Part shown: positions 19,778 to 64,000 of the stretch, one piece after another | How positions within the stretch are numbered: position 1 is the stretch's first letter | Layout of the letters: every line of letters starts with the position of its first letter | NCBI RefSeq assembly: GCF_002232035.1 | Contig: NZ_NKXR01000007.1 | Location: 1-64,000 of the forward strand | DNA from: Collinsella sp. TF06-26 | GTDB lineage: Bacteria > Actinomycetota > Coriobacteriia > Coriobacteriales > Coriobacteriaceae | Length of the DNA stretch: 64,000 bases | Direction: 5' to 3' | Translations under genes and position numbers: made by a program | Notes under the pieces: model-generated | What the model was told of the DNA's origin: nothing | Database searches by the model: none | Seen by the model: only the letters and a program-made list of their open reading frames with translations

Positions 19778-19905
19778 GGCTGGCTCCTCCTTTATGTAGA
19801 TGACCATGCAGAGAAGGGACAACCAAGGAGGCAGGTTGCTGATGCGGGCTCCCGCACGCCCACGACTACCCGACGGGGACTGTGTTTTCATCTCTGGTGC
19901 CCGCA
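19778..19905 (-). promoter_or_regulatory. structured leader of the yjdF-like gene (candidate yjdF riboswitch)
   Basis: On the minus strand a TACAAT -10 element is followed by a leader of about 110 nt. It holds a GCGGGAGCCCGC hairpin and a CAACC / GGTTG hairpin. A CAGAGATGA segment near its 5' end can pair either with TCTCTG or with TCATCT just before the GGAGGAG ribosome site. Such alternative pairings suit a translation-controlling riboswitch. The yjdF class is expected from the downstream gene, but I could not match its consensus from memory. Confidence 0.45.
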
Positions 19906-22824: not shown

Positions 22825-22875
22825 TGGTCGGGGACGTTCTTTAACGACTAGTCATTTAAGAACGATCCCAATGAC
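22824..22875. repeat. GACTAGTC-centred palindromic repeat, copy 1
   Basis: GGGGACGTTCTTTAA, then GACTAGTC, then TTTAAGAACGATCCC form an imperfect 50-bp palindrome directly after the GyrI relic stop. Related copies are at 54380, 54770 and 63828. Confidence 0.6.
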
Positions 22876-23169
22876 TATGCTGCTTGCCTTCGTTATCTGA
22901 CGACCTGGACGGCAAGTGCGCTCAACTGGATAAGAAAAAGCCGGGGAAAACGTCCCTGGCACTTGGAAGCCTTGCTTGCGGAAAACCAATTATTTTTAAA
23001 TCATGGGCTGTGCGAAAAGGCAAGTACATGAAACGATCGCTCCAATGGCGAAGCCCCAGCCTGCGCGCCAGCCCATAGGCAAGCCACCTGAGACCACTCA
23101 CTTTGCTCACCGCTGACGAAGACTTGCGACCTGGGGTTTGCGAGCTGCTCGCAGAACCCATGTTGCATA
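22876..23169. other. spacer with repeat copy 2
   Basis: I see no convincing gene here. It holds the second copy (23074-23141) of the 68-bp dispersed repeat also found at 21354-21422. Confidence 0.4.
23074..23141. repeat. dispersed 68-bp repeat, copy 2
   Basis: It carries the same ordered blocks as 21354-21422 (AAGCCACCTGAGAC, ACTCACTTTG, TGCGACCTGGGGTTT). It lies just after the acetyltransferase gene on the minus strand. Confidence 0.55.
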
Positions 23170-52707: not shown

Positions 52708-53667
52708 ATGTTGATGTATTTATCGCTGGCCCCTATGGAGGGGATTACCGGGCATGTGTTCCGTCGCGTGCATGCGGAGTGCTTCGGCGCGCTCGATTGT
52801 TATTACACGCCGTTTTTGCCGCCGCCGCGGGTGGGCAATCGCTTTGGCGGCAAGGCGTTTAAAGAGGTCGATCCTGCCAACAACCAGGGACTTAACGTGG
52901 TGCCCCAGCTGATGTCCAAGAATGCGGACGAGTTTGTGTGGGCGGCGCAGGTGCTTGCCGATATGGGTTACCGCGAGGTCAACCTCAACCTTGGCTGCCC
53001 TTCGGGTACGGTGGTCGCGAAGGGCAAGGGTTCGGGCTTTCTGCGCAATTTGGATGAGCTCGAGGTGTTCTTGAGCGACGTGTGCGAACGCTCGCCCTTG
53101 CCGGTGTCGGTCAAGACCAGACTGGGGCTCGAATGCGATGACGAGTACGAGCGCGTGCTCGACCTCTATTGCCGAATGCCGCTGGCGGAGTTGATCGTGC
53201 ATCCGCGCGTGCAAAAGGACCGTTATACGGGCTCACCGCGCAAAGAGTTTTACGGCGAGACGCTGGAACGGGCGCCGTTCCCCGTGGCCTATAACGGCGA
53301 CATCTTTGATCCTGAGGACATGGATGCGCTGGTGAAGGCCTATCCCGGAACACGCCACGTAATGTTGGGGCGCGGCTTGCTTGCGAATCCCGCGCTGGCT
53401 CGCATGGTTAAGGGCGACCCTGCCGCTACCGCCGCTGAGCTGCAACGCTTCCATGACATGCTGTTTGCGGCCTATGCGGACGAGATTGGGGGCAACGCGG
53501 TCTTTCGCATGAAGGAGTGGTGGTTCTACGCCAAATGCGCCTTCGCCGATCCCGCGACCGTTCACAAACTCGTACGCAAGACCAAAAAGGTCGATGAATA
53601 CCGTGCTGCTGTCGACCGTGTCTTTCGCGAGCAGCAGCTTGCGCCCATCGCCCGCTTTTGTGGCTAA
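52708..53667 (+). CDS. tRNA-dihydrouridine synthase
   Basis: This 319-aa flavoenzyme reduces uridines in the tRNA D-loop. It has the FMN site start LAPMEGITGHVFRR, the catalytic cysteine in NLNLGCPSGTVVAKGKGSGF, and phosphate-binding NGDIFDPED and MLGRGLLANP. GAGAGTGG precedes the ATG at 52708; the ATG at 52714 is also possible. Length and motifs fit the Dus family, but I cannot choose between DusA, B and C types with certainty. Confidence 0.9.
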   Translation: MLMYLSLAPMEGITGHVFRRVHAECFGALDCYYTPFLPPPRVGNRFGGKAFKEVDPANNQGLNVVPQLMSKNADEFVWAAQVLADMGYREVNLNLGCPSGTVVAKGKGSGFLRNLDELEVFLSDVCERSPLPVSVKTRLGLECDDEYERVLDLYCRMPLAELIVHPRVQKDRYTGSPRKEFYGETLERAPFPVAYNGDIFDPEDMDALVKAYPGTRHVMLGRGLLANPALARMVKGDPAATAAELQRFHDMLFAAYADEIGGNAVFRMKEWWFYAKCAFADPATVHKLVRKTKKVDEYRAAVDRVFREQQLAPIARFCG

Positions 53668-53724
53668 ATGATCCCTTGGGGACGGAGAAGAACGGATCGC
53701 CTGTGCCGGACCCATGCAAAAAAC

Positions 53725-53779
53725 TGTACGTCAGCATCCAAGGATGTCGAAAAATATCGTTTTTGGATGCTGACGTACA
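53725..53779. repeat. 55-nt hairpin repeat, copy 1
   Basis: The outer arms TGTACGTCAGCATCCAA and TTGGATGCTGACGTACA are exact complements, with a 21-nt interior containing TCGAAAAA. An almost identical unit is at 54818-54872. It lies between convergent genes (dus and the RHH gene) and may terminate both. Confidence 0.7.
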
Positions 53780-53798
53780 TGTTTGGTTCGGCAGGGGA

Positions 53799-54065
53799 CT
53801 AGGCAATCATTGCATCGAGTGTAATGAGTTCCCTGAGTCGCTCCGTGCGCGTTTGCCCATGGCGCTTTGCCTTTGCGTCAAATGCTTCAAGAACCGATTC
53901 GCCCACACGTGCCGATAAAACAACGCTTGGTTCATCGGAAATCGGCGGCCTTCCCAACTTGACGGTGTGGCCCTTCGGCCACTCATCTTTTTCGTATGCC
54001 GCTGCGGCTTTTTCTAGCTCACCGGGAGCAAACCCCATCATCTTTTCGAGCTGTTTAGCGTCCAT
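53799..54065 (-). CDS. ribbon-helix-helix protein (orphan antitoxin-like)
   Basis: This 88-aa protein starts at ATG 54065 after AGGAGG; a longer frame reaches 54140. The C-terminal half (VVLSARVGESVLEAFDAKAK, TRTERLRELITLDAMIA) has the ribbon-helix-helix pattern of CopG-like or BrnA-like antitoxins. The N-terminal half (PGELEKAAAAYEKDEWPKG) is a helical extension. No toxin gene is adjacent on either side: the next 860 bp upstream holds only repeats. It may be a solitary regulator or a toxin-less relic. Confidence 0.65.
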   Translation of the reverse strand: MDAKQLEKMMGFAPGELEKAAAAYEKDEWPKGHTVKLGRPPISDEPSVVLSARVGESVLEAFDAKAKRHGQTRTERLRELITLDAMIA

Positions 54066-54338
54066 AGCGCCTCCTATCGATTGACATAATGTCGAGCGCT
54101 GGTTACCGGAATCTCTTTTTGTATACAGTTTTGTAGACAAAAATACAAGCAGTTTATTAAGCTAATTAGCGTGTATTGACTAGTTTTTTCGATAGGAAAT
54201 GAGCATCGATGGCTTCGATATTTCTTCACTTTCTAGTCTGGAACATGAGCGCTCATTGAACCTGCAGAGGGGGCACTTTAACAAACTATCGAGATTCTGG
54301 CCAGGAGCTTTCACCGGTCTTCGGTGGTGAGAACAGCT

Positions 54339-54367
54339 CAATTCGCGACACAGTGTGTCGCGAATTG
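54339..54367. repeat. 29-nt perfect palindrome
   Basis: Arms CAATTCGCGACACA and TGTGTCGCGAATTG meet around one G. A smaller TCACC...GGTGA hairpin precedes it at 54311-54330. Together they look like a small structured RNA or a recombination target. No neighbouring copy was found. Confidence 0.5.
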
Positions 54368-54379
54368 GAGTAGTCGCTG

Positions 54380-54409
54380 AGTGTTCTTTAACAACTAGTC
54401 ATTCAAGAA
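54380..54409. repeat. GACTAGTC-type repeat, copy 2 (partial)
   Basis: GTGTTCTTTAACAACTAGTC followed by ATTCAAGAA matches the central half of the palindrome at 22824. Confidence 0.5.
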
Positions 54410-54461
54410 GAGAGCGTCTAAGTGCCGGAATTGCCATTTTGAGTCGTCCCTAACGACTATT

Positions 54462-54710
54462 CTGGAGGGCTGTGTGCAAAAAAGGGCAAATATGAGTACT
54501 GTTGCCATTATGGTTGCATTTATTTTGTTCAAAAATGAGGTCACTGATGAGATTTAATACCATTAGGCGTCTCTTTTATTGAACATATGGGGAGAAATAA
54601 CGTCGTCTGTGGGCGCTTGGGGCGTTGAATGATCCCTGGAATGATTAAAATCGCTGTTACTAAACAAGTAGCAGTACTCATATTTGCCATTTTTTGGACA
54701 CGGTCCTCTA
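54462..54710. mobile_element. MITE-like element, copy 2
   Basis: This 249-bp unit has inverted ends GTGTGCAAAAAAGGGCAAAT and GTGTCCAAAAAATGGCAAAT (right end shown reversed), both continuing ATGAGTACTG. It shares the ends and the internal ATCGCTGTTACTAAA block with 101-335. The interior differs and holds no transposase. Confidence 0.6.
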
Positions 54711-54769
54711 AGGAGCCCTTTCCAGAGACGTCAGATGGCCTCAAACAGCCATAATCCAAAGGCTGTCTC

Positions 54770-54803
54770 AAACAACTAGTCATTTAAGAACGTCCCCAAC
54801 GAC
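54770..54803. repeat. GACTAGTC-type repeat, copy 3 (partial)
   Basis: AACTAGTCATTTAAGAACGT followed by CCCCAACGACT matches one arm of the palindrome at 22824. Confidence 0.5.
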
Positions 54804-54817
54804 TGCCCACAAATAGC

Positions 54818-54872
54818 TGTACGTCAGCATCCAAAGATGTCGAAAAATGTCGACTTTGGATGCTGACGTACA
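54818..54872. repeat. 55-nt hairpin repeat, copy 2
   Basis: A 19-bp perfect stem starting TGTACGTCAGCATCCAAAG encloses ATGTCGAAAAATGTCGA. It matches the unit at 53725-53779 in length, stem and the downstream ATGTTTGG. Confidence 0.7.
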
Positions 54873-54925
54873 TGTTTGGGTCGTATGGGCTTGGACGTCG
54901 GGGCGAGCCGACCGCGGCGCGCGGG

Positions 54926-55171
54926 CTAGAGCAAATTCTCCTGCACCCACGCGATGATGTCGCCCGACTCGTAGAGTGGCGTGCCGTCAATGAACAGGCA
55001 GGGAACTTGGCGCTTTCCGCCGACGGCGATGAGCGTCTGCTCGGCATCGGAATCGGTCGAGATATTACGCTCGGGGATGGTCACGCCGTTATCGGCCAGG
55101 AAGCGCTTGACCTTTATGCAATACGGGCAGCCGGTCATAACGTAGAGCGCGAGCTCGTGATCAGTAGCCAT
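54926..55171 (-). CDS. glutaredoxin
   Basis: This 81-aa thioredoxin-fold protein has the CPYC active site (TGCPYCIKVKRFL), the cis-proline strand in KRQVPCLFIDG and the GDIIAWVQENLL end. It reduces disulfides or carries electrons in the cytoplasm. GGAGACCT precedes the ATG at 55171; a longer frame from 55210 lacks a site. A relic of a second copy lies at 52579. Confidence 0.9.
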   Translation of the reverse strand: MATDHELALYVMTGCPYCIKVKRFLADNGVTIPERNISTDSDAEQTLIAVGGKRQVPCLFIDGTPLYESGDIIAWVQENLL

Positions 55172-55222
55172 AGGTCTCCAATCGGTTGAGGTTTCGATTG
55201 AAATACCCAAAGCCGCCGCGGT

Positions 55223-63827: not shown

Positions 63828-64000
63828 CAGTAGTCATTGGGGACGTTCTTAAACGACTAGTCGCTGGGGACACTCTTTGCCGGAGTTGGCACTTGGGGAG
63901 TTGGCACTTAGGGACGTTCCTTATGTGCCGGCAGTTGGGGACAGTCCCAATCTGTCCGGCATAAAAGGAGCGTCCCCAAGTGCCGGGTGTGGGACAATAA
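63828..64000. repeat. repeat-rich block at the window edge
   Basis: It contains one GACTAGTC-type repeat (63828-63872: TTGGGGACGTTCTTAAACGA then CTAGTCGCTGGGGAC). Then come two close copies of TTGGCACTT(G/A)GGGA, a GGGGACAGTCCC palindrome around 63936-63947 and several TGCCGG/GTCCCCAAGTGCC segments. No gene is visible before the end of the window. Confidence 0.55.

What the first reader, a model, noticed from the sequence alone, without database searches (positions are those of the whole stretch)
53725..54872. Pair of 55-nt hairpins with almost identical 17-19 bp stems
The stems TGTACGTCAGCATCC... at 53725 and 54818 have equal length and share interior and flank (ATGTTTGG). Stem identity, interior and 3' flank are all kept, beyond what a terminator needs. 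They may be mobile REP units or a small RNA family.
Basis: seen in the sequence. Interest (0 to 1): 0.5.

Follow-up and report, generated by a model that had tools for sequence, protein, structure and literature searches.

The report
Hairpin repeats of a nuclease module
Two near-identical DNA hairpins in a Collinsella gut bacterium belong to a small family of palindromes that, in sister species and in another genus, bracket the gene of a DNA-cutting enzyme, which points to an unrecognised palindrome-plus-nuclease module.

Summary
In detail: 53719-53786 and 54812-54879 lie in a 74-nt repeat, 91% alike, and fold far better than shuffles (z about -9). They are not a local duplication: this genome has four places with the palindrome, and 22 of 43 genomes of the genus carry it at four orthologous loci. 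They are not RAYT-mobilised REPs: 0 of 20 RAYT loci carry the stem. Instead, in 9 genomes two copies bracket one gene for an MTES_1575/Vsr-like nuclease. This generalises. In a clade of 21 homologous nucleases all 21 are bracketed by two copies of a palindrome whose sequence differs between lineages; without the starting lineage and the member found through the palindrome it is 12 of 12, in five lineages. By the same test 9 of 18 RAYT genes and 2 of 136 other genes are positive. At one site a sister species has palindrome-nuclease-palindrome where others keep a lone palindrome. Best reading: the window's hairpins are solo copies of the end/target repeat of a palindrome-nuclease module, here bracketing a RHH gene. 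That the nuclease acts on the palindrome is inferred.

The parts
53719..53786 (+). palindrome copy 1 (model R1 positions 1-68; stem 53725-53779)
   Evidence: R1 84.9 bits, E 6.8e-19 in the genome search
54812..54879 (+). palindrome copy 2 (stem 54818-54872)
   Evidence: R1 89.4 bits, E 4.0e-20
53799..54068 (-). ribbon-helix-helix (CopG-type) gene, antitoxin-like, bracketed by the two palindromes; its 3' end lies 12 nt from copy 1
   Evidence: Pfam RHH_1 E 1.3e-4, over the cut-off; same gene between the palindromes in most sister loci with a pair
52708..53667 (+). tRNA-dihydrouridine synthase gene, conserved left neighbour
   Evidence: Pfam Dus E 2.2e-36; conserved neighbour
54926..55210 (-). 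glutaredoxin-like gene, conserved right neighbour
   Evidence: Pfam Glutaredoxin E 1.6e-16
54784..54805 (+). half of a separate REP-like palindrome (TTAAGAACGTCCCC...), which sits just left of the hairpin at this locus in most sister species

Best explanation
The two hairpins are solo copies of a palindrome that is the end repeat, and probably the recognition site, of a compact module: palindrome - gene for an MTES_1575/DUF559-type (Vsr-fold) endonuclease - palindrome. Shown here: in sister species this same palindrome brackets the nuclease gene; seven lineages of homologous nuclease are each bracketed by their own, different palindrome; and at one site module and lone palindrome alternate between species. 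Inferred: the nuclease binds and cuts or nicks its palindrome (as duplex or as extruded hairpin), repair of the break copies, deletes or swaps what lies between two palindromes, and replication template switching at the palindrome keeps the arms matched and flips the loop. In this genome the nuclease of this lineage is gone and four palindromes remain; the two in the window now bracket a RHH antitoxin-like gene.
For: (1) Nine genomes carry orthologs of the nuclease at 88-100% identity, all nine between two copies of this palindrome; 0 of the 21 genus genomes without the palindrome have a close ortholog. (2) Another genus of the family has a related palindrome (G058 6 places, G060 7 places), and in G060 a pair of them brackets one 383-aa homolog of the same nuclease. 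(3) One well supported clade (100/98) of 21 non-identical nucleases: 21 of 21 bracketed; without the 8 of the starting lineage and the one found through the palindrome, 12 of 12 in five lineages. The two ends of a unit are 84-99% alike over 56-88 nt (one unit, cut by a contig end, only over 24 nt), while palindromes of different lineages show at most short weak similarity, best E 0.003. (4) Control by the same test: 2 of 136 other genes and 9 of 18 RAYT genes positive. (5) G034 has the module where G031 and G025 have one palindrome; outer flanks 82-89% identical, shuffled 26%. (6) D232, E245, H251, D260 and R263 invariant in 20 members; 17 of 20 match MTES_1575 and 3 of 20 DUF559. (7) Loop orientation flips at two loci under the same flanks; arm differences between close copies are complementary far more often than by random placement.
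Against: No nuclease activity or palindrome binding was tested. All nine modules of this lineage sit at one orthologous site, so movement to new sites was not seen. No target duplication is evident at unit ends (read by eye). Solo copies were not found for three other lineages in the DNA I could search: none of the 345-aa lineage's palindrome in an 899,693-bp C. aerofaciens contig, none of two lineages in 398.6 kb of G027. In the wider family 30 of 59 non-identical homologs are not bracketed. The family matches are weak: 21.4 bits against a cut-off of 38.2 for the lineage at hand. AlphaFold failed (pLDDT 43). A nuclease that cuts its own end repeats would have to be restrained in a genome that holds them.
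Confidence: 0.5

Rival explanations
1. The palindromes are cis-regulatory hairpins of the nuclease gene: an operator or attenuator on the 5' side and a terminator or insulator on the 3' side, kept alike by gene conversion; solo copies elsewhere are left-overs or borrowed terminators.
For: Spacing is constant: 25-28 nt from the 3' end and 105-112 nt from the 5' end in the starting lineage, 41-56 and about 102 in the 345-aa lineage. Most lineages show only the bracketing pair in the DNA searched. In the window copy 1 lies between convergent genes.
Against: Neither copy is listed by the terminator scan, though that scan only allows loops of 3-8. At the pgsA locus and between the larC-like and PHP genes the palindrome lies between divergent genes. 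In one case in the other genus what reads as an ordinary GC hairpin with a T tract stands immediately before it (by eye). Regulation alone does not explain why both ends carry the same 55-80 nt including the loop, or the exchange of module and lone palindrome.
Confidence: 0.3
2. Relics without present function: old palindromes kept in shape by replication template switching and serving only as short homologies at which neighbouring genes are swapped by ordinary recombination.
For: Loop inversion and matched arm changes are the published footprints of template switching (PMC8794818, passages read) and both are seen. In locus 3 left and right flanks are shuffled against each other with the palindrome as pivot (by eye). 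The 64-kb region is fluid elsewhere too.
Against: Does not explain why a homologous nuclease is bracketed by a different palindrome in each lineage.
Confidence: 0.15
3. REP or BIME units mobilised by a RAYT.
For: RAYT-like genes are in 37 of 43 genus genomes, and a true REP-like palindrome lies next to the hairpin at this locus.
Against: 0 of 20 RAYT loci carry the hairpin stem within 5 kb; four of them carry relatives of the other, REP-like palindrome. Four places in the genome, not tens to hundreds.
Confidence: 0.02
4. A small RNA or structured RNA family.
For: Long stable stem. In the stem G-U mismatches (26 cells) outnumber A-C (9), a hint that the plus-strand RNA matters.
Against: No Rfam match; both loop orientations are tolerated; positions relative to genes differ from locus to locus. 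The G-U cells are not independent.
Confidence: 0.03

Closest known systems
REP / RAYT (REP-associated tyrosine transposase) systems
   Same: A gene for a nuclease bracketed by two copies of a palindrome that differs by enzyme lineage, with solo palindromes elsewhere in the genome; RAYTs of these same genomes pass the same test in 9 of 18 cases.
   Different: The enzyme is an MTES_1575/DUF559-type protein, not a HUH tyrosine transposase; palindromes are 55-80 nt instead of 20-40; copy number 4-7 instead of tens to hundreds; no RAYT nearby.
EDxHD (Vsr-fold) homing endonucleases such as I-Bth0305I
   Same: A nuclease of the same broad fold group; the described member dimerises on a target of nearly 60 bp (PMC3943268, passages read), about the length of these two-fold symmetric palindromes; module and lone site alternate at one place.
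   Different: Here the putative target stays intact on both sides of the gene. The EDxHD motif was not matched, and the link of EDxHD to Vsr is from memory plus the fold remark in the papers seen.
AbiEi/DUF559 proteins of Actinobacteria (recalled, no call)
   Same: Probable parent family of the nuclease; 3 of 20 members match DUF559 in Pfam.
   Different: The link to flanking palindromes was found in none of the papers listed.
Template-switch hairpins
   Same: Matched arm changes and whole-loop inversion (PMC8794818, passages read).
   Different: Here loops of about 17-19 nt invert repeatedly; that study reports inverted loops typically of 4 nt and up to 7-8 nt.

Membership tests
REP / RAYT | RAYT gene flanked by the same palindrome | tested here: not met
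   0 of 20 RAYT loci
REP / RAYT | high copy number in the genome | tested here: not met
   4 places in G000; 4-13 match rows per genome counting both strands
REP / RAYT | 20-40 nt palindrome with an unpaired GTAG or CGTC tag | tested here: not met
   25-bp arms, 17-nt loop, no such unpaired tag; definition from PMC3733652 passages
Intrinsic terminator | GC-rich short-loop stem followed by a T run | tested here: inconclusive
   not listed, whose loop limit is 8; minus strand of copy 1 has T6 after the stem, copy 2 has not (by eye)
Known Rfam RNA family | covariance-model match at gathering score | tested here: not met
   two matches in the window, neither at the hairpins
Palindrome-bracketed nuclease module (proposed here) | nuclease homolog with copies of one palindrome on both sides | tested here: met
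   9 of 9 orthologs with this palindrome; 21 of 21 in the clade. The window itself has the palindromes but no nuclease.
MTES_1575 / DUF559 nuclease | Pfam match and conserved acidic/His residues | tested here: inconclusive
   17 of 20 and 3 of 20 match at E up to 0.01, the first lineage below the curated cut-off; D232, E245, H251, D260, R263 invariant
EDxHD homing endonuclease | cuts an allele that lacks the gene, which is then copied in | not testable with these tools
   module versus lone palindrome at one site is compatible
DNA transposon | insertion at different sites with target duplication | tested here: not met
   units of a lineage share one site; no duplication seen by eye

The most novel reading that the evidence does not exclude
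Coriobacteriaceae carry a self-propagating element class in which a Vsr/MTES_1575-type endonuclease, not a transposase, recognises its own long palindrome and spreads or is lost by break repair, leaving solo palindromes that later capture and exchange other genes: a REP/RAYT-like system that evolved around a restriction-fold enzyme.
Probability: 0.35. Interest if true: 0.85.

Novelty: new variant of a known kind. Interest (0 to 1): 0.62.

Why it matters
DUF559/MTES_1575 proteins are common and unexplained. A lineage-specific palindrome on both sides of the gene gives each of them a concrete candidate substrate, so their function becomes directly testable. It would also show that the REP/RAYT layout (enzyme between two of its palindromes, solo palindromes elsewhere) arose with an unrelated enzyme, and it offers a natural series of loop inversions and matched arm changes for studying template switching in bacteria.

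Tried and rejected
Local duplication: rejected, four places in the genome and orthologous copies in sister species. RAYT association: rejected. Phage, plasmid or viral origin: no match in phages, plasmids or viral contigs for this copy; a later plasmid search with another copy hit only NZ_OY725717.1, a C. aerofaciens record of the same length as contig G007:C6, so most likely chromosomal. Systematic terminator: rejected as a general rule because the gene layout differs by locus. A site-specific recombinase acting on the arms: set aside because a 17-nt loop seems too short for two sites to meet (argument, no call). Hairpin as marker of variable regions in general: weakened, because the 64-kb window has many other indels against five sister genomes. 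Defence-system reading of the cassettes: PADLOC gave only weak hits. Structure of the nuclease: the model was too poor to search with; PDB sequence search gave nothing. Results that did not favour the structure: the number of pairs with a double change (6, shuffled 6.1) and of further pair types (21, shuffled 23.6) are not above the shuffles; the cells with double change (63, shuffled 38.7), the cells paired and the covariation score are.

Selection to keep in mind: of the 61 nuclease homologs tested, 20 loci were the ones returned by the search, 1 came through the palindrome, and 40 places were picked by me from the longer list for spread. Two identical proteins were dropped before the tree. 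The row L062:5577-5644 (one arm replaced) was left out of alignment A1 on purpose; identical rows and the N-containing row of L049 were left out too.

Full report
WHAT IS THERE. The two hairpins stand at 53719-53786 and 54812-54879, in a 74-nt direct repeat, 91% identical. Their folds reach -32.4 to -37.4 kcal/mol, 8.6 to 10.3 standard deviations below shuffles. They lie between a dihydrouridine synthase gene (52708-53667, plus) and a glutaredoxin gene (54926-55210, minus) (Pfam), and bracket a ribbon-helix-helix gene (53799-54068, minus; RHH_1). No Rfam family matches them.

DISTRIBUTION. The genome has four places with the palindrome: the two here, C11:17407-17474 and C5:2082-2149. A covariance model R1 from 55 copies finds it in 22 of 43 genomes of the genus. 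In 297 genomes of the order it matches 24: these 22 and two (G058, G060) of another genus of the family. An exact 28-letter pattern in 84,980 species genomes gives 19 stretches, all named Collinsella; viral contigs, phages and plasmids gave none.

FOUR ORTHOLOGOUS LOCI. Locus 1, the window: between dus and the glutaredoxin gene. Locus 2: between two tRNA-Ser genes and a Gly_transporter gene. Locus 3: between a LarC-like (Ni_insertion) and a PHP gene. Locus 4: just upstream of a CDP-alcohol phosphatidyltransferase gene (Pfam for loci 3 and 4). Locus 1 has a single palindrome and nothing else in L068 and L070, and two palindromes round variable cargo in other species: the RHH gene, transposase genes (IS110-type, Mutator-type), a macrodomain protein, a radical SAM/SPASM protein. 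The outgroup G013 has dus and grx next to each other without the palindrome. The palindrome lies between convergent genes at locus 1 but between divergent ones at loci 3 and 4, so it is not simply a terminator.

HOW THE PALINDROME EVOLVES. Of 1375 cells in 25 pairs 88.7% form a standard pair, against 30.5-45.8% when the arms are slid; 63 cells changed on both sides against 38.7 in shuffles. Two other measures, pairs with a double change (6 against 6.1) and further pair types (21 against 23.6), do not exceed the shuffles. Between close copies of one locus, differences fall on partner positions far more often than by random placement: 44 against 7.7, 45 against 3.2, 93 against 23.7, 10 against 0.6, and 4 against 0.5 (pairs of copies are not independent, and in the last group the random maximum was also 4). 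Window copy 2 and its counterpart L075:3613-3680 differ in the 68 columns only at columns 13 and 55, a C-G to T-A change. The loop is found in both orientations under the same flanks: at locus 4 in 6 of 16 copies plus and 10 minus, at locus 2 in 8 minus of 22 copies (the script left 9 of 16 and 3 of 22 undecided and I read those by eye). Matched arm changes and loop inversion are described footprints of template switching in replication (PMC8794818, passages read), so the covariation is not proof of a selected RNA.

NOT REP/RAYT. RAYT-like genes are found in 37 of 43 genus genomes. In 20 RAYT loci fetched, none carries the hairpin stem; four carry relatives of a second palindrome, AAGAACGTCCCCAATGACT, which has 40 matches within two mismatches in this genome and stands immediately left of the hairpin at locus 1 in most species. 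That second palindrome is the better REP candidate.

THE NUCLEASE. At locus 2 two palindromes bracket one gene of 335 codons with a weak match to Pfam MTES_1575, a Vsr-fold nuclease (the family's first description, passages read in PMC3710099). A genus-wide search finds close orthologs (88-100%) in nine genomes, all nine between two palindromes. In G060, of another genus, a related palindrome pair brackets a 383-aa homolog. The other homologs showed the same layout with other palindromes.

TEST AND CONTROL. For 61 homologs I compared the 450 nt on the left with the 450 nt on the right (plus 60 nt of gene): 31 of 61 share a repeat at E up to 1e-5; of 154 other genes of at least 250 codons in the same material 11 do. 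Of the 154, 18 are RAYT genes, of which 9 are positive, a positive control; that leaves 2 of 136. In a tree of 59 non-identical homologs, 29 of them bracketed, one clade (support 100/98) holds 21 proteins, all bracketed; the label needs 7 changes against 19.9 in shuffles, 0 of 500 as low. Of the 21, eight are the starting lineage and one was found through the palindrome; the other 12 of 12 fall into five lineages. Outside the clade 8 of 38 are positive; some of these repeats are palindromic (L302, L321, L325) and others are short or not (L303, L305, L311, where L305 is below the threshold). Palindromes of different lineages share at most short weak similarity. In 20 members D232, E245, Y246, G248, H251, D260 and R263 are invariant.

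MODULE AND LONE PALINDROME. At locus 2 G034 has palindrome-nuclease-palindrome, while G031 and G025 have one palindrome; the outer flanks are 89 and 82% (left) and 87 and 88% (right) identical, against 26% for shuffled sequence. Two other lone-palindrome genomes agree on the left flank only. So module and lone palindrome alternate at one site, as a full element and a solo-LTR-like scar would. Direction (gain or loss) was not determined.

LIMITS. Other lineages gave no solo palindromes in the DNA searched: an 899,693-bp C. aerofaciens record (where a hairpin query did find its own copies) and 398.6 kb of G027. So the bracketing pair is the constant feature, and solo copies are shown only for this palindrome and its relative in the other genus. 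The window holds no trace of the nuclease (best tblastn E 0.24). Binding, cutting and mobility are untested. The structure model failed (pLDDT 43). Searches of the open-access library for MTES_1575 (4 papers), DUF559 with palindromes (2 papers) and related terms listed no paper on this link; subscription papers are not held there.

MECHANISM. I commit to this: the palindrome is the recognition site of its nuclease; a break or nick there is repaired from a sister copy or by pairing of two palindromes, which copies the module in, deletes it to a lone palindrome, or swaps what lies between. Template switching at the same palindrome keeps its arms matched and flips its loop. The layout and the exchange of states are shown; every enzymatic step is inferred.

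Noticed in passing
window 22856-22877, 54784-54805, 63831-63852; genome-wide: A REP-like palindrome (AAGAACGTCCCCAATGACT) with 40 matches within two mismatches in the genome; relatives of it flank a RAYT gene in 4 of 20 RAYT loci.
   Followed up: partly
L052 3989-5278 and 9051-10223: Two IS110-family elements, each with its end inside this REP-like palindrome next to a hairpin copy; IS110 elements are known to target REPs in other bacteria (PMC1525189, passages read).
   Followed up: partly
window 54465-54531 and 54642-54708: Inverted repeat of 67 nt, 73% complementary, 110 nt apart, MITE-like, inside the cargo region between the hairpins.
   Followed up: no
window 54339-54367: Perfect 14-bp inverted repeat with a 1-nt gap, CAATTCGCGACACA.
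   Followed up: no
window 19799-19901 (-): azaaromatic (yjdF) riboswitch, 55.6 bits.
   Followed up: no
L052 8346-8648: A 100-aa ORF without a Pfam, NCBIfam match beside the remains of the RHH gene in a sister species; it could be the toxin partner that the window lacks (inference only).
   Followed up: no
NZ_OY725717.1 (plasmid collection): Listed among plasmids as 899,693 bp; it has the same length as contig G007:C6 of a C. aerofaciens genome and carries the hairpins, so it is probably chromosomal.
   Followed up: no
L194-L214, upstream of pgsA: Most outgroup species have a tRNA-Pro-like sequence upstream of pgsA where the hairpin clade has the palindrome and variable genes (read by eye), so locus 4 looks like a rearrangement boundary.
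   Followed up: no
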